From: Lachnospiraceae bacterium UBA3850
Lineage (GTDB): Bacteria > Bacillota > Clostridia > Lachnospirales > Lachnospiraceae
Direction of reading: 5' to 3'
DNA length: 64,000 bases
Assembly: GCA_002392655.1 (NCBI GenBank)
Contig: DGHK01000024.1
Span: 8,047 to 72,046 of the forward strand
Position numbers and translations under genes: made by a program. Position 1 is the first letter of the stretch. Each line of letters starts with the position of its first letter. Positions 22,106-33,540 of the stretch are shown here, piece after piece. The notes under the pieces were generated by a model. It was not told where the DNA came from and made no database searches. It saw nothing but the letters and a program-made list of their open reading frames with translations.

Positions 22106-22139
22106 GAAGCAGTGCTTATGCTTCTTTAAGCACTGCTTC
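22106..22139 (-). terminator. Terminator of the sulfur amino acid operon
   Basis: A perfect 13-bp stem (GAAGCAGTGCTTA at 22106-22118 with 22127-22139) followed on the minus strand by TTTTATTG. It overlaps the last codons and stop of the alcohol dehydrogenase gene. Confidence 0.9.
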
Positions 22140-23309
22140 AAATCCACTTGCATCTAGTGGTACATAGTGACCTACCGGCCCATTTCTTGTAGCTCTTTTT
22201 GCCATTCTTGCAAATCTGCTGTCGTTAATCTTTAACTCTTCAAGCGAAGTAGCGAGACTCAGTTCTTTGAAGAACTCACGAAGCTTATCCGAAAGAATGA
22301 GAGCTCTTTCTTCTTCTGAGTAATCGTATGCGTCGGCACCGAACACTCTTGATGCGAGAAGTGCAGGTCTCCAAGGCTTTACACCGGCTATATATTTGGT
22401 CCATGCCACAAGAACTACTGCCATTCCCTCACCATGCGTTATTCCATACTCGGCAGAGAGCTCATGCTCTATTCTGTGAGAGCCCCAATCAGCAGATCTT
22501 CCTGCATCAAGGAAATTGTTGTGTGCTACGCTTGCGAGCCACTGTACCTCAGCCTTTGCATTCAGATAATCCTCTGATTTAATAAGCTCTTCTCTACTTA
22601 GTGAATGCTGCAGATTCACTATCCTTCTGCCGTTTAAAAGGAGGGCTTTTACTGCCCCCTCGATCAGATAGTCTGTAGTGTCTGAATTCCTCTCATCTGA
22701 GAAATATCTCTCAAGCAGATGTGCAAGCACATCCGCAATTCCTACATTTGTCTGATACTCAGGGAGCCCCAGGGTATACTCAGGATTTAAAATGGCAAAC
22801 CTGGGTATGATCCTGTCATCCTCAAATCCAAGCTTCCATTCACCGCTTGAAAGGATGGCTGCGTTTGATGTTTCGGATCCACTTGAGGCTGTTGTGGAGA
22901 TTACTCCGATAGGAAGAACCTTTTCCGGAACTGTACCCTTTTCGAAGAAATCCCACACATCGCCTATATAAGGGATACCTATGGCGACCGCCTTTGCGGT
23001 ATCTATGGCGCTACCGCCTCCGACCGCCAAGATAAAATCTACCTTTGCCTCTTTACCTCTCTCAACCAATTCTCTGGCAAGCTCAATGGTAGGATTCGGA
23101 ACAACATCACCACTCTCAATGATGTTAATCCCAAGCTCCTCGGAGGCCTTATGTACTACCTCGTATATGCCCAGATCCTTAATGAAGTCACCGCTGTATA
23201 CCAGGAGCAGGGACGTCACTCCCTCAGCCTCAAGAAGATTTTTAAGTTTATTTTGACTTCCGACTCCGAAGATGATCTTCGCCGGATTATAATACTCAAA
23301 GCTTTTCAT
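22116..23309 (-). CDS. Iron-containing alcohol dehydrogenase (YqhD/BdhA-like)
   Basis: 397 residues, group III iron alcohol dehydrogenase. NAD(P)-binding GGGSAIDTAK at 97-106, the TTASSGSETSNAA segment, metal ligands Asp193 and His197 in IADVLAHLLERYF and two later histidines in HELSAEYGITHGEGMA. It reduces aldehydes to alcohols with NAD(P)H, and is closest in form to butanol dehydrogenases. It begins 23 bases after metQ with no visible promoter, so it appears to be the last gene of the sulfur amino acid operon; its link to that pathway is not obvious. Confidence 0.92.
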   Translation of the reverse strand: MKSFEYYNPAKIIFGVGSQNKLKNLLEAEGVTSLLLVYSGDFIKDLGIYEVVHKASEELGINIIESGDVVPNPTIELARELVERGKEAKVDFILAVGGGSAIDTAKAVAIGIPYIGDVWDFFEKGTVPEKVLPIGVISTTASSGSETSNAAILSSGEWKLGFEDDRIIPRFAILNPEYTLGLPEYQTNVGIADVLAHLLERYFSDERNSDTTDYLIEGAVKALLLNGRRIVNLQHSLSREELIKSEDYLNAKAEVQWLASVAHNNFLDAGRSADWGSHRIEHELSAEYGITHGEGMAVVLVAWTKYIAGVKPWRPALLASRVFGADAYDYSEEERALILSDKLREFFKELSLATSLEELKINDSRFARMAKRATRNGPVGHYVPLDASGFEAVLKEA

Positions 23310-23332: not shown

Positions 23333-24289
23333 TTAATATAAAGGAACTACTGCTCCATCATATGTAGCATTGATGTAATCACTGATCTCTTTACCCTGAA
23401 GAACTGATACAAGAGCCTTAAGTGCCTCATCATTTTCCTTATCCTTTGAGGTTGCTATGATATTTCCATATGTCTTAGCTGCAAGACCGTCGTTTGCTTC
23501 TACCGCAAGTGCATCCTTAACACTGAGACCACCCTCGATTGCATAGTTACCATTTATTACTGCTACGTCTACATCAGGAAGTGCCTGTACAAGCTGCTCA
23601 GGTGCAAGCTCCTTGAACTCTATGTTCTTAGGATTGTCTGTGATATCAGCTACTGTTGCTTCGATACCTGCATCCTCCTTAAGTGTTATTATTCCTTCCT
23701 GCGCAAGAAGAAGAAGTGCTCTTGCTTCATTTGTAACATTGTTAGGAACTGCTACTACTGCTCCGTCAGGAAGATCCTTCAAATCCTTAACCTTGCCTGC
23801 ATAAACACCAAATGGCTCATAATGAACTGCTCCGATTGATACGAGATCTGAACCGTTCTCCTCATTGAACTGTTCAAGATACGGAACATGCTGGAAGTAA
23901 TTTGCATCAAGACTTCCCTCGATTACTCCGGTGTTTGGTGCGATAGAATCTTCTATCTGAACTACCTCAAGTGTTATTCCCTGCTCTGCAAGAAGTGGCT
24001 TTGCCTGTTCAAGTATCTCTGAGTGAGGTGTGATGTTAGCACCAACCTTGATTGTTACAGGATCTCCTGTGTAAACAAACTCTTCTGCATCTCCTGAAGT
24101 ACTTGCCAGCTTATCAGCCTCAGTTACTTCCTTGTCCAGCTCTTCGCTGCTTACTTCCTCTGTAGCCTCAGCAACCTTCTCAGCTGTTGTTGTTTCTTTC
24201 TTGTTATCTGCATCCCCTGAGGATCCGCATCCTACAAGTCCAAGTGCCAGTACAAGTGATACTCCTAAACCATAAATCTTCTTTCTCAT
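23333..24289 (-). CDS. metQ: Methionine-binding lipoprotein MetQ (NlpA family)
   Basis: 318 residues. A signal peptide ends in the lipobox LGLVGCGSS (lipidated Cys21), followed by a Thr/Glu-rich linker and the NlpA domain: VKVGANITPHSEILEQAKPLL, VVQIEDSIAPNTGVIEGSLDANYFQHVPYLEQFN and the later VPNNVTNEARALLLLAQEG. It captures methionine at the cell surface for MetNI. The order metN-metI-metQ is the standard Firmicute one. Confidence 0.95.
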   Translation of the reverse strand: MRKKIYGLGVSLVLALGLVGCGSSGDADNKKETTTAEKVAEATEEVSSEELDKEVTEADKLASTSGDAEEFVYTGDPVTIKVGANITPHSEILEQAKPLLAEQGITLEVVQIEDSIAPNTGVIEGSLDANYFQHVPYLEQFNEENGSDLVSIGAVHYEPFGVYAGKVKDLKDLPDGAVVAVPNNVTNEARALLLLAQEGIITLKEDAGIEATVADITDNPKNIEFKELAPEQLVQALPDVDVAVINGNYAIEGGLSVKDALAVEANDGLAAKTYGNIIATSKDKENDEALKALVSVLQGKEISDYINATYDGAVVPLY

Positions 24290-24313: not shown

Positions 24314-24967
24314 TTATGCTTTTCTAGTTCTTTTTGACAGTTTTACACCTGCCTCCTGGATGATCATTACCATAAGTATAAGTATGGAAACTGTTATCCA
24401 GAGAACTGTTTTATCATATCTGTAATATCCATACTGGAGTGCTATTGCACCGAGTCCGCCTCCGCCGATAACTCCCGCCATGGCTGAATAACCAAGCACT
24501 GTAGCTATGTTAATTGCAGCCCCTAGAAGCAATGATGGAAAGGCTTCCGGTATGATAAAATGTATGATTATAAAAAGTGGGCTTGCTCCCATTGAGTTTG
24601 CCGCCTCGATGATTCCCGGAGGAACCTCGTTTAGTGATGACTCAACCATTCTTGCAACAATTGGTATAGTACCTATTGTAAGCGGAACGATAGAGGCCGT
24701 GGTTCCTATGGAAGAACCAACCAGAAATCTCGTAACTGGTATAAACAAAACCAGCAGTATCAGAAACGGAAGTGATCTGAACAGATTAACTATAAATCCG
24801 ATGATTGCATTTACCGGACGATTCTCATAAAGTCTTCCTTTGGAGGTAACATATAGGATAACTCCCAGAGGAAGTCCTAGGATATAAGCAAATAACGATG
24901 AGAAAAAGGTCATCTGCAGTGTTTCAAATACGCCTCGTATTATGGCGTCTCTTATATAATCACTCAT
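24314..24967 (-). CDS. metI: Methionine ABC transporter permease MetI
   Basis: 217 residues with five membrane helices and the permease EAA loop EAANSMGASPLFIIIHFIIPEAFPSL. Family-typical opening RGVFETLQMTFFSSLFAYILGLPLGVILYVTS. It lies 15 bases after metN and 24 before metQ. Confidence 0.95.
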   Translation of the reverse strand: MSDYIRDAIIRGVFETLQMTFFSSLFAYILGLPLGVILYVTSKGRLYENRPVNAIIGFIVNLFRSLPFLILLVLFIPVTRFLVGSSIGTTASIVPLTIGTIPIVARMVESSLNEVPPGIIEAANSMGASPLFIIIHFIIPEAFPSLLLGAAINIATVLGYSAMAGVIGGGGLGAIALQYGYYRYDKTVLWITVSILILMVMIIQEAGVKLSKRTRKA

Positions 24968-24982
24968 AATCTTCCTCCTTCT

Positions 24983-26032
24983 CTATGCTACTTCACTTTT
25001 GCTTTCCCACTTTATCTCTGTTACAGTGAGTCCGCTTTTTCTAAAGTATTTCAGAACTATGTCCTGATCTGACTTTGATTCAGGGAGCTCGACTACCATC
25101 TGTCCGTAGCCGATTCCTCCAACGCTCTTTGTATTTGCGCTGAGTATATTTACTTTCTTCCCGGTATCCTCAACCAGATTCGAAATGATTGGTCTGTTTG
25201 CTTCAAGTCCATCAAATACTATACGAACAAGCTTTCTGTTACTTCTGGGTACATCGAATTCATTTTCACCCAGATTGTCATCACCTCTGAATACCAGACG
25301 CTTTGCCGCTTCAGACTTAGGTGATTCAAATACATCTATGACATCCCCGATCTCTGCGAGGTTACCGTTATCTATGATGGCAACTCTGTCACATATCTTC
25401 TCTACTATGGACATCTCGTGTGTTATTATGACCACCGTCAGCTTTCTGGTCCTGTTGATATCACGGAGCAGATCAAGTATCTCTCCTGTTATCTTCGGAT
25501 CAAGCGCGGACGTAGCCTCATCACATAACAGAACCTTTGGGTCATTTGTCAGTGCTCTGGCTATAGCAACTCTCTGCCTTTGTCCTCCTGAGAGCTGCGA
25601 TGGATATGCTTTACGCTTTTCCTCAAGACCAACGACCCTCAGCATCTCCAGAGCTTTCTTCTTCCTCTCGGCTCTTCCAACTCCGGCAATTCTGAGCGGC
25701 AGCATAACATTTTCCAAAACTGTTTTCTGCATCAATAGGTTGAAGTCTTGAAATATCATCGATATCTCTTGACGTACATTCCTCAGCTCACCGGCTTTAA
25801 GTTTTCCTATATCCTTTCCATAGAAAAGAACTTCACCTGAATCAATCTCTTCAAGTCTGTTAAGAGTTCTCACCAGTGTTGACTTACCGGCACCACTCAT
25901 TCCGATGATTCCGAATATCTCTCCCTCATAGATATCCAGGCTTACGTTCTTCAGTGCGGTAAATTCTTTTCCTTCGTTTTTGTAGATCTTCGTAACATCC
26001 TTAAGTTCAAAGACCCTTTCTTTATCTGCCAT
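24983..26032 (-). CDS. metN: Methionine ABC transporter ATPase MetN
   Basis: 349 residues. Walker A GMSGAGKSTLVRTLNRLE, Q-loop MIFQDFNLLMQKTVLENV, signature LSGGQRQRVAIARAL, Walker B LLCDEATSALDP. Residues about 255-345 form the C-terminal NIL domain (RIVFDGLEANRPIISNLVE), which binds methionine and inhibits uptake when the cell is replete. Being in one operon with mccA and mccB, it would supply methionine as a cysteine source. Confidence 0.96.
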   Translation of the reverse strand: MADKERVFELKDVTKIYKNEGKEFTALKNVSLDIYEGEIFGIIGMSGAGKSTLVRTLNRLEEIDSGEVLFYGKDIGKLKAGELRNVRQEISMIFQDFNLLMQKTVLENVMLPLRIAGVGRAERKKKALEMLRVVGLEEKRKAYPSQLSGGQRQRVAIARALTNDPKVLLCDEATSALDPKITGEILDLLRDINRTRKLTVVIITHEMSIVEKICDRVAIIDNGNLAEIGDVIDVFESPKSEAAKRLVFRGDDNLGENEFDVPRSNRKLVRIVFDGLEANRPIISNLVEDTGKKVNILSANTKSVGGIGYGQMVVELPESKSDQDIVLKYFRKSGLTVTEIKWESKSEVA

Positions 26033-26050: not shown

Positions 26051-26605
26051 TTATCTTATATTCTCTCTCCATGTAGCTGGCTTAAACTCATTGATGATAG
26101 GAAGAAGTCTCTGATCAACATCTATCTTCAGTACTGAGTTGAAGTTATTAGTTGCTATCATCTGTCCTGCGAAGCCTACGATTACTACTATCTCCTGATC
26201 GTTCCAGAACTTCTTCAGTGTATCGAAGAGCTCATCTGAAACAGCCGTAGGATTCTTTACTATCTGCTGTCCAAGTGATGTAAGTGCCTGCTCTTTCTCA
26301 TCATACTGAAGATTTGCCGGATCAAGTCCAAGTCCCTTGACATCACTGATAAAGAACAGTGAGCAAAGCTGGCATGAATTTGTTGTTGATATTGAATGAG
26401 CATAGAGGATAGCATCCTTCTCTCCTATAACCTCTACCAGACGATTCCATGATGTGTACCATGCCATATATGCATCATAGGTAGCAGCATCATTCAGAAG
26501 ACCTCTCTTCATGTTTGTAACTGCATTTCTGCCTGCCAGTTCCTCGTATCTCTCCTTCTCTTTTCCGCTTGTTTCCTCAAGCTCTAAAAGTTTTACTCTT
26601 GCCAT
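26051..26605 (-). CDS. Carboxymuconolactone decarboxylase/AhpD-like protein
   Basis: 184 residues, all helical, with the CMD/AhpD core: AHSISTTNSCQLCSLFF, including a CxxC pair at 78 and 81, followed about 70 residues later by FWNDQEIVVIVGFAGQMIATNNFNSVLKID. AhpD-like proteins are thiol-disulfide or peroxide-linked; a thiol role would suit a cysteine operon. It lies between mccA (166-base gap) and metN (18-base gap). Substrate unknown. Confidence 0.8.
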   Translation of the reverse strand: MARVKLLELEETSGKEKERYEELAGRNAVTNMKRGLLNDAATYDAYMAWYTSWNRLVEVIGEKDAILYAHSISTTNSCQLCSLFFISDVKGLGLDPANLQYDEKEQALTSLGQQIVKNPTAVSDELFDTLKKFWNDQEIVVIVGFAGQMIATNNFNSVLKIDVDQRLLPIINEFKPATWRENIR

Positions 26606-26771: not shown

Positions 26772-27680
26772 TCAGAAAAGGCCCTTGCTTATATATCTGT
26801 CGCCTCTGTCCGGGAGGATTGCAACTATGTTTCCCTCTTCTATCTCCTCAGCAAGCTTTAATGCTGCGAAAAGTGCTGCTCCTGATGAAGAGCCTGCAAT
26901 TATTCCTTCATGCAGAGCTAGACTTCTTGATGTTTTAAATGCATTCTCATCTGTTATTTTTATGACCTTATCTATCAAACTCACATCCATAGTATCGGCT
27001 ATAAAATCATTTCCTATTCCCTCTATATCATAATCAGCATGCTCTCCTCCGCCGATTATCGAGCCATATGGATCAGCGAGCACTCCCTGAATATCAGGTC
27101 TTTGCTCCTTCAGATACTTCATAACACCTGAAAATGTACCACCGCTTCCTGCACCTGCAACGAAATAATCAACCTTACCGTCAAGTTGTCTATATATCTC
27201 CGGTCCTGTTGTCTCATAGTGAGATAGCGGATTAGCAGGATTGTCAAACTGTTTCAGAGAGATAGCTCCGGGTATGGTTTTTATGATTTCCTCAGCCTTC
27301 CTGTCAGCCCCAAGCATTCCTTCTGCTCTTGGCGTATGAACAATCTCTGCGCCGAGTGCCGCCATGATTCTCTGCTTCTCCATAGAGAACTTCTCCGGCA
27401 CAGCAAATATGATCCTATATCCCTTATTAAGTGCTGCAACGGCTATTCCTATTCCTGTGTTTCCTGCAGTTGCGTCAACGATGGTACCGCCCTCCTTTAG
27501 GACTCCCCTCTCCTCTGCATCACGTATCATATAGTCTCCAACCCTGTCCTTTACACTGCCTGCAGGATTCATAAGCTCCAGCTTTACATATACATTTACC
27601 CTGGGCTTTACGCCCATATGATTTATTTTAAGGATAGGCGTATTACCTATCATTTCCTGAACACTGTTATATACTTCCAT
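26772..27680 (-). CDS. mccA: O-acetylserine-dependent cystathionine beta-synthase
   Basis: 302 residues of the cysteine synthase fold. The PLP lysine is Lys44 in NPAGSVKDRVGD, with the DATAGNTGIGIA loop and the phosphate-binding GAGSGGTFSG. Features such as PEKFSMEKQRIMAALGAEIVHTPR and the C-terminal ILPDRGDRYISKGLF match Bacillus MccA rather than CysK. MccA joins homocysteine to O-acetylserine to make cystathionine, the first step of reverse transsulfuration. Neighbouring mccB (18-base gap) supplies the next step. Confidence 0.9.
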   Translation of the reverse strand: MEVYNSVQEMIGNTPILKINHMGVKPRVNVYVKLELMNPAGSVKDRVGDYMIRDAEERGVLKEGGTIVDATAGNTGIGIAVAALNKGYRIIFAVPEKFSMEKQRIMAALGAEIVHTPRAEGMLGADRKAEEIIKTIPGAISLKQFDNPANPLSHYETTGPEIYRQLDGKVDYFVAGAGSGGTFSGVMKYLKEQRPDIQGVLADPYGSIIGGGEHADYDIEGIGNDFIADTMDVSLIDKVIKITDENAFKTSRSLALHEGIIAGSSSGAALFAALKLAEEIEEGNIVAILPDRGDRYISKGLF

Positions 27681-27698: not shown

Positions 27699-28844
27699 CT
27701 ATGCCGTGATCGCCTGCTCCAGGTCGGCGATGATATCATCTACATCTTCTATTCCTACAGATAGTCTGATCAGCTCATCCGTGATCCCCACTTCCTCTCT
27801 TATCTCCTTCGGAATGGCTGCATGTGTCATAGTTGCCGGATGGCACAAAAGTGACTCCACACCTCCGAGACTCTCTGCCAGAGTAACCAGCTTGGTACTC
27901 TTAAAAAACTTCTTGTAGTCATATTCCTTCTTTAGCGTAAATGATATCATCGCACCCGGACCGTCAGCCTGCTTCTTCTGAACCTCATATCCGGGGTCAG
28001 ATTCAAGGCCCGGATAGTAAACCTTGTCTACGTATCCGCTTTCTGCAAGCCAACCTGCAATCTTTTTCGCATTTTCGACATGTCTGTCCATTCTGACTCC
28101 CAGAGTCTTGATACCTCTTATCATCAGGTAGCTGTCCCAAGGTCCGAGTATTCCGCCTATCGCATTCTGCAGATAATAAAGTCTGTCAGCCAGCTTCTTG
28201 TCATTTACAACTACAAAACCTGATACCACATCACTATGTCCTCCGAGGTACTTTGTTCCGCTGTGGATGACTATATCTGCTCCTAGTTCTATAGGTCTCT
28301 GTAGATAAGGTGTCATAAATGTATTGTCGACGATCAGCAGTCTACCGCTCTCCTTTGCCACCCTCGAAACAGCCTCTATATCCGTAACAGTAAGTAGAGG
28401 ATTTGCTGGGCTCTCAACATATATGGCCTTCACATCATCGTCCAGAGCTTGCTTTACTGCCTCTAGGTCAGAGGTATCAACTATCTTGTAGGTTATATTA
28501 AAGTTATTAAAAACATTATCCAGAATTCGGAAGGTTCCTCCATAGATATTGTCAGACACGATCAGCTTGTCTCCTGTTTTGAAAAGTGAGAGAACAGTTG
28601 ATATAGCCGCAAGTCCTGATGCAAATGCGAGACCATACTCTCCCTTCTCCAGATCAGCAACAAGTTTCTCGAGTGCGGCTCTGGTCGGATTTCCCGTTCT
28701 TGAATACTCCCAGCCCCCTCTGGTCTGACCCAGCCCATCCTGCTTATAGGTCGAGGTCTGATAAACAGGAACATTTACAGCCCCCGTAGTTTCATCTCCA
28801 TCGATTCCTCCGTGAATTAAAAGTGAATTGATTTTAAGTGACAT
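27699..28844 (-). CDS. mccB: Cystathionine gamma-lyase (Cys/Met metabolism PLP enzyme)
   Basis: 381 residues. PLP-binding lysine Lys198 in IHSGTKYLGGHSD, the VYQTSTYKQDG N-terminal substrate loop, YSRTGNPTRAALE and the C-terminal RLSVGIEDVDDIIADLEQAI. Context with mccA argues for gamma-lyase (cystathionine to cysteine) rather than the synthase; some members also degrade homocysteine to H2S. First gene of the sulfur operon, behind a strong CTAGGAGGAAG ribosome binding site and a cysteine-codon attenuator. Confidence 0.93.
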   Translation of the reverse strand: MSLKINSLLIHGGIDGDETTGAVNVPVYQTSTYKQDGLGQTRGGWEYSRTGNPTRAALEKLVADLEKGEYGLAFASGLAAISTVLSLFKTGDKLIVSDNIYGGTFRILDNVFNNFNITYKIVDTSDLEAVKQALDDDVKAIYVESPANPLLTVTDIEAVSRVAKESGRLLIVDNTFMTPYLQRPIELGADIVIHSGTKYLGGHSDVVSGFVVVNDKKLADRLYYLQNAIGGILGPWDSYLMIRGIKTLGVRMDRHVENAKKIAGWLAESGYVDKVYYPGLESDPGYEVQKKQADGPGAMISFTLKKEYDYKKFFKSTKLVTLAESLGGVESLLCHPATMTHAAIPKEIREEVGITDELIRLSVGIEDVDDIIADLEQAITA

Positions 28845-28878
28845 TTTTTCTTCCTCCTAGAATTTTTTGCAAAATAAA

Positions 28879-28903
28879 AACGAAGCAAAATTCTTGCTTC
28901 GTT
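28879..28903 (-). terminator. Attenuator terminator in the mccB leader
   Basis: A perfect 10-bp stem, AACGAAGCAA with TTGCTTCGTT, five-base loop, followed on the minus strand by TTTTTATTTT. It lies 35 bases ahead of the mccB start, inside the leader, so it must be conditional. Its 5' arm can instead pair with the antiterminator segment at 28965-28974. Confidence 0.9.
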
Positions 28904-28963
28904 AAGTCTCTTAGGCACGGCATAATACCGCTTTTATTTAGTCTCTAAAGGATCCTCAAACAT

Positions 28964-28974
28964 ACGAAACAAGC
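28964..28974 (-). promoter_or_regulatory. Antiterminator segment of the cysteine attenuator
   Basis: Minus-strand RNA GCUUGUUUCGU; its last ten bases pair with ACGAAGCAAG of the terminator 5' arm (one G-U pair). It begins 12 bases after the leader peptide stop codon, so a ribosome finishing the peptide would cover it, whereas one stalled on the cysteine codons would leave it free. Confidence 0.75.
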
Positions 28975-28986
28975 CATTATGAATAT

Positions 28987-29040
28987 TCATTCACAACAGC
29001 AACAACAGTTTCTTCTGAATGTCTGAACTGATCCTTTCAT
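28987..29040 (-). CDS. Cysteine-rich leader peptide (MKGSVQTFRRNCCCCCE)
   Basis: A 17-residue open frame with five consecutive cysteine codons (28993-29007: TGT TGT TGC TGT TGT) directly before the last codon and stop. AAGGAG lies five bases upstream of the ATG. It follows the operon promoter, and is followed by an antiterminator and a terminator ahead of mccB. This is the layout of amino-acid-sensing transcription attenuation: shortage of charged cysteine tRNA would stall the ribosome here and let transcription read into the cysteine-making genes. The peptide itself need have no other function. Confidence 0.85.
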   Translation of the reverse strand: MKGSVQTFRRNCCCCCE

Positions 29041-29069
29041 AGTTTCTCCTTAACTTCCTTTTCTTATTT

Positions 29070-29088
29070 ACCTACCAAGTTGATAGGT
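29070..29088 (-). promoter_or_regulatory. Operator-like palindrome in the sulfur operon leader
   Basis: ACCTACCAAGTTGATAGGT, a palindrome with ACCTA/TAGGT arms, lies 6-24 bases past the predicted start site, well placed to block initiation or early elongation. A near copy is found at 33449-33467 over a second promoter. Binding protein unknown; an Rrf2/CymR-type sulfur repressor is one possibility. Confidence 0.6.
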
Positions 29089-29100
29089 TTTACGATGTAT

Positions 29101-29129
29101 AGATTAGCACCCACTTAATATCTTGTCAA
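29101..29129 (-). promoter_or_regulatory. Promoter of the sulfur amino acid operon
   Basis: Minus-strand TTGACA (29124-29129), 17-base spacer, TAATCT (29101-29106). Predicted start near 29094, giving a leader of about 250 bases that holds the operator, leader peptide and attenuator. Confidence 0.8.
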
Positions 29130-32042: not shown

Positions 32043-32954
32043 TTATTTATTATAAGCCTTGTCACTGTACTTACTCAGTTGATCGATATAGAGCTGACCG
32101 AGTTCGGATATCTTCGAATCCTTTCTCTTTATATAACCAATACGCATCTTCTCACTCTCTTTAAGAGGTATGGCAGCATAGCCGGAACCATTCAGATCCT
32201 CACTGATAATACCGGAGCAAAGTGTGTAGCCATTCAGTCCGACCATGAGATTCAGCATGGTCGCACGATCATTGCCCTTGATTATTTTATCATAATCATA
32301 GGTGCTGAGCTGCTCTTCCGCCAGGAAAAGAGAACCGGATTTACCCTGATCAAATGAAAGAACAGGATAATCCCTGAGCTCTTCAATCGATAGCTCCTTC
32401 TTTTTCGACAGGGGATGTCTGTCGCTCAGATAGACAAATGTATCACAGGTGAAAAGCTCTCTGAAGGAAAGTGAATTCGCACTTAGAAGCTTCTTTATAA
32501 CCTTCTCATTAAAATCATTTATATAAAGAATTCCCAGCTCCGACTTGAAGTTTTTTACATTTTCTATAACCTCATCCGTTCTGGTTTCATAAACAGCAAA
32601 CTCAAACTTCTCCATACCGTACTGTTTTACTACTTCAACAAAAGCTTCCACGGCGAAGGAATAATGCTGCATAGATACGCTGAATTTCTGCCTGCTCTTC
32701 TTCCCCAGGTAATGGTCTGAAAGCAGATCGAACTGATCATTCACCTGTCTGGCATAGCCTAGGAATTCTTCTCCTTCTGAACTGATTATCATTCCCTTGG
32801 TGGATCTGATGAATATCTCAAAGCCCAGTTCATTTTCCAGTTCCTTAATGGCACCCGAAAGACTCGGCTGTGATATAAAAAGTTTCTTCGCCGCCTCATT
32901 CATAGAACCACTATCTGCTATCTCTATCGCATATTTTAATTGCTGTAATGTCAT
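32043..32954 (-). CDS. LysR family transcriptional regulator
   Basis: 303 residues. N-terminal winged helix-turn-helix MTLQQLKYAIEIADSGSMNEAAKKLFISQPSLSGAIKELENELGFEIF and a periplasmic-binding-protein-like effector domain (about 90-300). It resembles the CysB/CmbR-like branch in general form, but the ligand cannot be told. It lies just downstream of a decayed gene (32970-33440) that shares an operator with the cysteine operon, so a sulfur link is possible. Confidence 0.92.
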   Translation of the reverse strand: MTLQQLKYAIEIADSGSMNEAAKKLFISQPSLSGAIKELENELGFEIFIRSTKGMIISSEGEEFLGYARQVNDQFDLLSDHYLGKKSRQKFSVSMQHYSFAVEAFVEVVKQYGMEKFEFAVYETRTDEVIENVKNFKSELGILYINDFNEKVIKKLLSANSLSFRELFTCDTFVYLSDRHPLSKKKELSIEELRDYPVLSFDQGKSGSLFLAEEQLSTYDYDKIIKGNDRATMLNLMVGLNGYTLCSGIISEDLNGSGYAAIPLKESEKMRIGYIKRKDSKISELGQLYIDQLSKYSDKAYNK

Positions 32955-33432: not shown

Positions 33433-33467
33433 ATGATACCATCTATTTACCTACTATGTCAATAGGT
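33433..33467 (-). promoter_or_regulatory. Promoter and second copy of the sulfur-operon operator
   Basis: Minus-strand TTGACA (33457-33462), 18-base spacer and TATCAT (33433-33438). The palindrome ACCTACTATGTCAATAGGT (33449-33467) covers the -35 box and matches the one at 29070-29088 in both arms. It now drives only the decayed gene. Confidence 0.6.
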
Positions 33468-33480
33468 TTATAACGGTAAT

Positions 33481-33540
33481 AATAAGTCAGTGGGGACGGT
33501 TCTCATTTGCTTCATAGAGAACCATCCCCACTGACTTATT
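33481..33540. repeat. REP-like palindrome, also a likely terminator
   Basis: A 24-base arm (33481-33504) pairs with 33517-33540 with one mismatch around a 12-base loop; the arm includes GTCAGTGGGGACGGTTCTC. Palindromes built on GTGGGGACGGTTCTC are, from general knowledge, widespread in Firmicutes near REP-associated tyrosine transposases. Only one copy is seen here and no transposase. Its position just after the PurF-like gene means it may also end that transcript. Confidence 0.65.

What the first reader, a model, noticed from the sequence alone, without database searches (positions are those of the whole stretch)
28879..29129. Cysteine attenuator: five-Cys-codon leader peptide, antiterminator and terminator ahead of the mccBA-met operon
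The sequence shows, in order on the minus strand: a consensus promoter, AAGGAG, an ATG starting a 17-residue peptide with five successive Cys codons, a stop, an antiterminator segment 12 bases on, and a perfect terminator 35 bases before mccB. The antiterminator pairs over ten bases with the terminator arm, and the ribosome footprint geometry fits classical attenuation. Firmicutes are known to control such genes mainly by T-box, S-box or CymR; ribosome-mediated cysteine attenuation is known to me mainly from actinobacteria, so this may be little described in Clostridia. The whole operon makes cysteine from methionine.
Basis: partly seen in the sequence, partly recalled or inferred. Interest (0 to 1): 0.88.

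Follow-up and report, generated by a model that had tools for sequence, protein, structure and literature searches.

The report
Cysteine attenuator of a cysteine-making operon
A gut bacterium appears to switch on its cysteine-making genes by letting ribosomes stall on five cysteine codons in a tiny upstream peptide gene, and relatives in several bacterial groups carry the same kind of switch where some better-known clostridia use a different RNA sensor.

Summary
On the minus strand a promoter, SD and 17-codon ORF (MKGSVQTFRRNCCCCCE) precede a ten-base region 2, and a terminator ends 35 nt before mccB. Leader codons 2-12 form region 1, which pairs with region 2 (-21.3 kcal/mol, shuffle p=0.003). 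In constrained folding, a ribosome at Cys codons 1-2 lets region 2 pair with the terminator arm before the terminator is made (P=0.97); at the stop, or without a ribosome, that pairing is 0.00. This is the classical attenuator layout. It is conserved: 19 of 21 readable upstream regions of genus mccB genes hold a Cys-cluster ORF. Region 2 and the terminator arm changed together (own partner -15.2, foreign -10.8 kcal/mol, permutation p 5e-5). Similar leaders precede mccBA operons in other Lachnospiraceae, Ruminococcus, Fibrobacter MAGs and a Treponema MAG. Five Clostridium loci carry a T-box there. I found no description for Clostridia in the papers searched; Cys leaders are published for Actinobacteria and for cysS in Rhodobacterales. 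Cysteine response is inferred; I have no expression data. Verdict: a well-supported prediction, new member of a known kind.

The parts
29101..29129 (-). sigma-70-type promoter (TTGACA-17-TAATCT)
   Evidence: sequence only
29065..29087 (-). inverted repeat CCTATCAACTTGGTAGGTAAATA just after the promoter; operator-like; second copy at 33444-33466
   Evidence: 2 matches in the window, 0.07 expected; similar repeats by eye in relatives
29046..29051 (-). Shine-Dalgarno AAGGAG of the leader ORF
28987..29040 (-). leader peptide ORF MKGSVQTFRRNCCCCCE, stop TGA
   Evidence: Cys-cluster ORF in 19 of 21 readable genus loci
28993..29007 (-). five consecutive Cys codons TGT TGT TGC TGT TGT
29008..29037 (-). 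region 1 (leader codons 2-12), pairs with region 2
28947..28974 (-). region 2: CTTGTTTCGT (28973-28964) pairs with region 3; 28970-28947 pairs with region 1
28893..28902 (-). region 3 ACGAAGCAAG, shared by antiterminator and terminator
28880..28888 (-). region 4 TTGCTTCGT, 3' arm of the terminator
28871..28880 (-). T tract TTTTTATTTT of the terminator
27699..28844 (-). mccB-like gene (cystathionine gamma-lyase/homocysteine desulfhydrase)
   Evidence: PRK07671, 560 bits, below its cut-off of 594
26772..27680 (-). cysK/mccA-like gene
   Evidence: TIGR01136, just above its cut-off; the name mccA is by context
26051..26605 (-). 184-aa protein, weakly YciW-/peroxidase-related
   Evidence: weak, far below cut-offs; no Pfam match
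24983..26032 (-). MetN-type methionine ABC transporter ATPase
   Evidence: best match, below its cut-off
24314..24967 (-). MetI permease
   Evidence: above cut-off
23333..24289 (-). MetQ/NlpA-type lipoprotein
   Evidence: best match, below its cut-off
22116..23309 (-). iron-type alcohol dehydrogenase, last gene of the run
   Evidence: below cut-offs

Best explanation
It is a classical four-segment ribosome-mediated transcription attenuator that reads charged tRNA-Cys and controls an operon for cysteine synthesis from homocysteine plus methionine uptake. With cysteine plentiful, the ribosome runs through the five Cys codons to the stop; region 1 is uncovered and pairs with region 2; region 3 then pairs with region 4 and transcription stops before mccB. 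With cysteine short, the ribosome stalls at the first Cys codons and covers region 1; region 2 pairs with region 3, the terminator cannot form in time, and the operon is transcribed. Shown here: the parts, the three pairings, their conservation, and their predicted dependence on ribosome position. Inferred: translation of the leader, stalling, timing, and the response to cysteine.
For: All parts present and in order. Region 1:2 -21.3 kcal/mol, p=0.003; the relatives L010-L012 fold with a similar hairpin around the Cys run. Constrained folding of the window: P(2:3) before region 4 is made is 0.97, 0.97, 0.33, 0.31, 0.14 at Cys codons 1-5 and 0.00 at the stop or without a ribosome. Cys-cluster ORF in 19 of 21 readable genus loci, with the flanking peptide free to change. 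Own region 2 beats foreign region 2 for the terminator arm on average: 19 genus leaders -15.23 against -10.81, permutation p 5e-5; 49 leaders -15.06 against -11.08, same p. Region 2:3 pairing reaches shuffle p<=0.05 in 28 of 51 non-duplicate leaders tested, 13 of 19 in the genus. Of 51 leaders simulated, 44 reach P(2:3)>=0.5 at a Cys codon, and 42 of those fall below 0.25 when the ribosome is further on. No Rfam T-box or riboswitch in the window at gathering score. The own genome's six T-box matches precede leuA-type genes (two), thrS, trpE-type and pheS genes and one gene named aspS by eye, none a cysteine gene.
Against: No transcript, ribosome-profiling or reporter data. Once region 4 exists, equilibrium folding favours the terminator even with the ribosome at Cys 1 or 2 (2:3 0.36 and 0.18; 3:4 0.61 and 0.80), so antitermination depends on 2:3 forming first. 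In the swap test a leader's own region 2 was the single best partner in only 3 of 19 genus leaders and 3 of 49 overall, since near relatives share sequences; the seven Fibrobacter-type leaders give no signal (p 0.51). Region 1:2 is not general: p<=0.05 in 6 of 14 genus leaders tested, and only 14 of the 44 leaders that respond in the model have P(2:3)<0.25 without a ribosome. In the window's own class L011 and L012 keep 22 and 23 of its 34 pairs, with region 1:2 p 0.106 and 0.156, and L011 stays antiterminated at the stop in the model. 23 of 51 leaders miss p<=0.05 for 2:3. The terminators were picked by energy. In L016 and L020 no Cys leader was found before mccB or in the 3.2 and 6 kb read upstream.
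Confidence: 0.86

Rival explanations
1. The leader type senses sulfur amino acids in general (Met as well as Cys). In many relatives Met codons stand next to or between the Cys codons, so shortage of either charged tRNA would antiterminate.
For: In a mixed group of 25 leaders apart from the genus's own mccB leaders, Met is 10.8% of non-start residues (binomial p 4e-27 against an assumed 2.8%) and stands just before the first Cys pair in 18; likewise in 4 of 6 leaders of the Fibrobacter type. Examples: MCMCMCCC, MCCRM, MCCCM. Many of these operons carry metN and metI.
Against: The window leader has no internal Met codon. The 13 methyltransferase-operon leaders show no excess (3.4%, p 0.28). The Fibrobacter-type loci have the Met codons but no clear metN in the stretch held (several contigs end early). 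Related leaders are not independent, so the p values overstate. Met shortage would also switch on Met consumption.
Confidence: 0.2
2. Translation of the leader works through Rho, mRNA stability or translational coupling rather than through the intrinsic terminator, as suggested for actinobacterial Cys leaders.
For: Cys leaders in Actinobacteria lack obvious terminators, and Rho was suggested as one possibility (PMC1262725, passages).
Against: A U-tailed hairpin was found after the Cys run in the window and in all but one (L139) of the 58 leaders annotated, L046 aside; in the window it shares region 3 with the antiterminator.
Confidence: 0.06
3. The Cys run is a functional Cys-rich peptide (metal or redox) or a chance ORF, and the hairpin a mere upstream terminator.
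For: A MAGVLxCRC stretch after the run is kept mainly by synonymous change in seven leaders (39 synonymous, 17 non-synonymous pairwise codon differences).
Against: Chance is excluded by shuffles. In the window's class the peptide ends just after the run; peptides differ among genera while Cys codons and pairing stay.
Confidence: 0.04

Closest known systems
Ribosome-mediated transcription attenuators of amino-acid operons (trp, his, leu type; recalled), including His leaders predicted in Firmicutes (PMC9413887, PMC2965389; passages seen)
   Same: Short SD-led ORF with tandem cognate codons, mutually exclusive 1:2, 2:3 and 3:4 helices, intrinsic terminator before the first gene
   Different: Cysteine codons, mccBA operon; many relatives lack a clear region 1 and translate through region 2
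Cys leader peptides of Actinobacteria (PMC1262725, passages; Canestrari 2020 known only from its title and citing passages)
   Same: Runs of Cys codons before cysteine genes
   Different: There no conserved terminator, and leaderless starts in mycobacteria; here SD, antiterminator and terminator
uORFC-8-2 motif before cysS in Rhodobacterales (PMC8632094, passages)
   Same: Tandem Cys codons, intrinsic terminator, same proposed logic
   Different: Two Cys codons, tRNA-synthetase gene, alphaproteobacteria; no link in sequence was tested
Cys-specific T-box of ubiG-mccBA in Clostridium (PMC2940859, passages; T-box matches in L085, L096, L118, L126, L128, specifier codon not checked here)
   Same: Same enzymes, same signal (charging of tRNA-Cys), same output (terminator readthrough)
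   Different: tRNA bound directly by the RNA; no leader peptide; no Rfam T-box match in this window

Membership tests
Ribosome-mediated transcription attenuator | Short ORF with SD and tandem codons for the product amino acid | tested here: met
Ribosome-mediated transcription attenuator | Intrinsic terminator between leader and first gene | tested here: met
Ribosome-mediated transcription attenuator | Antiterminator (2:3) exclusive with the terminator and conserved | tested here: met
   28 of 51 leaders individually at p<=0.05
Ribosome-mediated transcription attenuator | Protector helix 1:2 masked by a ribosome stalled at the regulatory codons | tested here: met
   window; only 6 of 14 genus leaders at p<=0.05, not general in relatives
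Ribosome-mediated transcription attenuator | Readthrough rises when the cognate tRNA is uncharged | not testable with these tools
   needs reporter or RNA data
T-box (RF00230) | Match to the T-box covariance model | tested here: not met
   no match in the window at gathering score
SAM riboswitch (RF00162) | Match to the model | tested here: not met
   none in the window; none in the genome at E<=0.001
Actinobacterial Cys leaders | Cys run without an intrinsic terminator; leaderless start in mycobacteria | tested here: not met
   terminator and SD present
uORFC-8-2 (Rhodobacterales cysS) | cysS directly downstream | tested here: not met
   downstream gene is mccB-like
uORFC-8-2 (Rhodobacterales cysS) | Sequence and structure consensus of the motif | not tested
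   consensus not at hand

The most novel reading that the evidence does not exclude
A so far unnamed, widespread family of sulfur-amino-acid attenuators: Cys-run leaders (in many lineages Cys plus Met codons) control reverse-transsulfuration operons across Bacillota, Fibrobacterota and Spirochaetota, standing where some Clostridium species use a T-box, and some integrate both cysteine and methionine supply.
Probability: 0.3. Interest if true: 0.75.

Novelty: new member of a known kind. Interest (0 to 1): 0.62.

Why it matters
It suggests that clostridia and other gut bacteria read cysteine charging in two unrelated ways for the same operon, by T-box or by translating ribosome, which makes the swap between RNA sensors directly testable. 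It also flags many unannotated short genes as regulatory, and gives a sharp prediction: in the window Cys codons 1 and 2 should matter most.

Tried and rejected
Rejected: T-box or riboswitch; chance ORF; other TGYx4 sites of the own genome as leaders (SD not scored there). I first thought the window's stop lay too early for attenuation, because region 2 starts 12 nt beyond it; the free fold then showed region 1. One search tested 15 leaders set before other first genes: no terminator was found for L169, L170 and L074's second leader (the finder takes hairpins up to 45 nt; L169 and L170 show longer ones by eye); of the 12 with a p value, 7 reach p<=0.05 (L072, L088, L100, L102, L113, L114, L119) and 5 do not (L099, L123, L133, L171, L175). 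In one search the misses include L018, L022, L023, L024, L026, L029 in the genus and L039, L043, L050, L052, L058, L060, L062, L066, L067, L073, L074, L089, L093, L097, L098, L105, L137 outside; L046 was too short and L139 had no terminator. The 11 pairing classes were grouped by eye, so that p value (2e-5) is secondary; own partner was best in 5 of 11 classes. Seven genus loci matching mccB at only 46-48% identity (L032-L038) were left out of the counts, as were six loci fetched twice (L064, L065, L068, L069, L072, L078); one search also left out L089, L137 and L139. L112 was left out (79 of 80 loci read). The group called Fibrobacter includes L098, whose record is titled Clostridiales bacterium Firm_16. 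Alignment A1 used wrong coordinates for L010 and was replaced by A2.

Full report
Observation. Searches confirm every stated part at the stated place. On the minus strand these are the promoter TTGACA-17-TAATCT, AAGGAG, an ATG at 29040 opening MKGSVQTFRRNCCCCCE, a stop ending at 28987, GCTTGTTTCGT twelve bases on, and the terminator ending at 28880, 35 bases before the mccB start at 28844. No Rfam family reaches its gathering score anywhere in the window.

Genes. Downstream lie an MccB-like lyase (PRK07671, 560 bits, under its cut-off of 594), a cysteine-synthase family enzyme (MccA by context; the name is recalled), a 184-aa protein weakly like YciW, MetN-, MetI- and MetQ-type proteins and an iron-type alcohol dehydrogenase. 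Upstream, on the other strand, is a SulP-type permease (below its cut-off). The operon fits cysteine synthesis from homocysteine plus methionine uptake, but none of its seven genes matches MetK or SAH recycling.

The missing segment. Folding the leader showed that codons 2-12 (29037-29008) pair with 28970-28947, which overlaps the antiterminator segment. The duplex is -21.3 kcal/mol with p=0.003 against 300 shuffles of region 1. In constrained folding, with the ribosome masking 18 nt before to 12 nt after the A-site start, pairing of region 2 with region 3 before region 4 exists is 0.97 at Cys codons 1 and 2, 0.33 and 0.31 at 3 and 4, 0.14 at 5, and 0.00 at the stop or without a ribosome. A second set-up with other transcript ends gave 0.93, 0.87, 0.02, 0.01, 0.01, and 0.00 at the stop. 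This is the textbook logic, and it answers the problem that a ribosome at the stop barely reaches region 2. Against it: with the whole leader present, equilibrium favours the terminator even with the ribosome at Cys 1 or 2 (2:3 0.36 and 0.18, 3:4 0.61 and 0.80), so the switch needs 2:3 to form first. The three nearest relatives fold similarly, though L011 and L012 keep only 22 and 23 of 34 pairs and their region 1:2 p values are not significant; over 14 genus leaders 6 reach p<=0.05 for region 1:2.

Conservation in the genus. Of 61 genomes searched, 24 have an mccB stretch of 60% identity or more. Three of these could not be read upstream (L028 and L030 at contig ends; the fragment of G039 was not fetched). 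Of the 21 readable upstream regions, 19 hold a Cys-cluster ORF; L016 and L020 do not, have another gene before mccB, and show no convincing leader in the 3.2 and 6 kb read further upstream. Under stricter rules (three consecutive Cys codons and a strong SD) the count is 13 of 21. Over all 118 upstream regions in that call it is 31, against a shuffle mean of 0.07.

Co-change of the helices. The antiterminator/terminator pair differs wholly between relatives yet still pairs: CTTGTTTCGT with ACGAAGCAAG in the window, CATTCTTCGC with GCGAGGAATG in L015, CCGGACA with TGTCCGG in L018. Swapping region 2 among 19 genus leaders weakens the pairing from -15.23 to -10.81 kcal/mol on average, and none of 20000 permutations does as well as the real pairing; the result is the same for 49 leaders. 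A leader's own region 2 is the single best partner in only 3 of 19 and 3 of 49, because near relatives share sequences. Seven leaders of the Fibrobacter type share one sequence type and give no signal (p 0.51). Individually, 28 of 51 non-duplicate leaders pass p<=0.05 for 2:3, and 13 of 19 in the genus.

Wider spread. A search of 397 family genomes found mccB at E<=1e-140 in 25. Of the 25 loci this added, 13 have a Cys-cluster ORF within 500 bases of mccB, and four more (L053/L175, L054/L170, L055/L171, L063/L169) have one before an earlier gene of the operon. Of the other stretches read further upstream, none showed a convincing leader. Among 79 of the 80 named loci read, leaders were seen in records titled Lachnospiraceae, Oscillospiraceae, Saccharofermentans, Mageeibacillus and others, and in 6 of 8 Fibrobacter records (L093, L097, L103, L105, L107, L108; not L091, L109). 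Where mccB is not the first gene, Cys leaders often stand before a TIGR00027/LCM methyltransferase gene, fused to MetK in L114 and L169. Such cases include Ruminococcus bromii (L102, 2:3 p 0.010), R. flavefaciens (L123 p 0.945, L133 p 0.075: weak) and a Treponema MAG (L088, p 0.005); the other four Treponema or Spirochaetes loci have none (L087, L092), a borderline one (L089, p 0.055) or a doubtful one (L090). The recurrent peptide 'DTGG' there reads as the coding image of region 2 (my reading). Most of these records are MAGs, so mis-binning of single cases is possible. In the loci held at that point, SD-preceded short ORFs with a CCC run were commoner than with any other triplet run: 56 for Cys, 31 for Leu, 16 for Ser (overlapping loci counted more than once, and the loci were chosen around mccB).

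T-box swap. Rfam search of 13 loci, L102 with a Cys leader and 12 without a convincing one, found T-boxes upstream of mccB in 5 (C. ljungdahlii, C. luticellarii, C. yunnanense, C. manihotivorum, Clostridium sp. UBA1056). In the other 7 (both Acetobacterium loci, C. aminobutyricum, C. carboxidivorans, Hungatella, L116, L087) no T-box reached the cut-off, so what controls them is open; the C. carboxidivorans locus holds SAM riboswitches. C. perfringens has a Cys T-box before ubiG-mccBA (PMC2940859, passages). The own genome has six T-box matches, three over the cut-off, before leuA-type genes (two), thrS, trpE-type, pheS and, by eye, aspS genes, none of them for cysteine, and no SAM riboswitch at E<=0.001. 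So two sensors of the same signal appear to stand in for each other; a full census was not made.

Diversity and doubt. Most relatives outside the window's class have longer ORFs that run through region 2. Only 14 of 44 responsive leaders need a ribosome for antitermination in the model, while 42 of 44 lose it once the ribosome has moved on. So the non-starved state is classical in the window and probably rests on translation through region 2 in many others. This is inference.

Met codons. In a mixed group of 25 leaders Met makes up 10.8% of residues and precedes the first Cys pair in 18; in 13 leaders of methyltransferase operons there is no excess. The background of 2.8% is assumed and the leaders are related, so the p values overstate. 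Dual sensing is possible and unproved.

Literature. Nine paper searches, in open-licence PMC papers only, found no Cys attenuator described for Clostridia, Fibrobacter or Treponema in their listings or in the passages I opened. They found Actinobacterial Cys leaders without obvious terminators (PMC1262725, passages), a Rhodobacterales cysS leader with terminator (PMC8632094, passages), and His leaders in Firmicutes (PMC2965389, PMC9413887, passages). Canestrari 2020 was not held and is known here from citing passages. Subscription journals were not searched.

Verdict. A real, conserved and mechanistically complete predicted attenuator; a known kind of switch in a new place, with a wider family behind it. 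The cysteine response itself is untested.

Noticed in passing
window 29065-29087 and 33444-33466, minus strand: Inverted repeat CCTATYNACNNNGTAGGTAAATA near the mccB promoter and again overlapping a promoter-like TTGACA about 490 bases before a LysR-type gene (32043-32954; type by eye). Two matches against 0.07 expected; with up to 3 mismatches each copy finds only itself in the genome. It fits the T-N11-A spacing recalled for LysR regulators; in L010 and L080 a LysR-like gene end lies directly upstream of the mccB leader or gene (by eye).
   Followed up: partly
L018, L019, L021, L022, L023, L026, L042, after the Cys run: Leader peptides share MAGVLxCRC with mostly synonymous change (39 against 17 pairwise codon differences; pairs not independent), which suggests selection on the peptide or on a second Cys cluster, not only on RNA pairing. 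Unexplained.
   Followed up: partly
L066, L067, L070, L071, L073, L075, L076, L081, L082 and others: Met codons flank or alternate with the Cys codons (MCCRM, MCCCM, MCMCMCCC); possible dual Met/Cys sensing.
   Followed up: partly
L113, L114, L169: LCM/TIGR00027 methyltransferase fused to MetK as first gene of a Cys-leader operon with mccB (L114 and L169 by family search; L113 by length and score): a possible one-protein Met to SAM to SAH step in the place that UbiG holds in Clostridium.
   Followed up: no
L074:4025-4144 and L072:204-311: Further Cys leaders before a metQ-type gene inside the operon (L074, no terminator found) and before an O-acetylhomoserine sulfhydrylase gene (L072; region 2:3 -23.1 kcal/mol, p 0.005), so the switch may not be limited to mccB.
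   Followed up: partly
window 33480-33535: Long perfect hairpin (GTGGGGATGGTTCTC...GAGAACCGTCCCCAC) after a purF-like gene (named by eye), ahead of the second inverted repeat.
   Followed up: no
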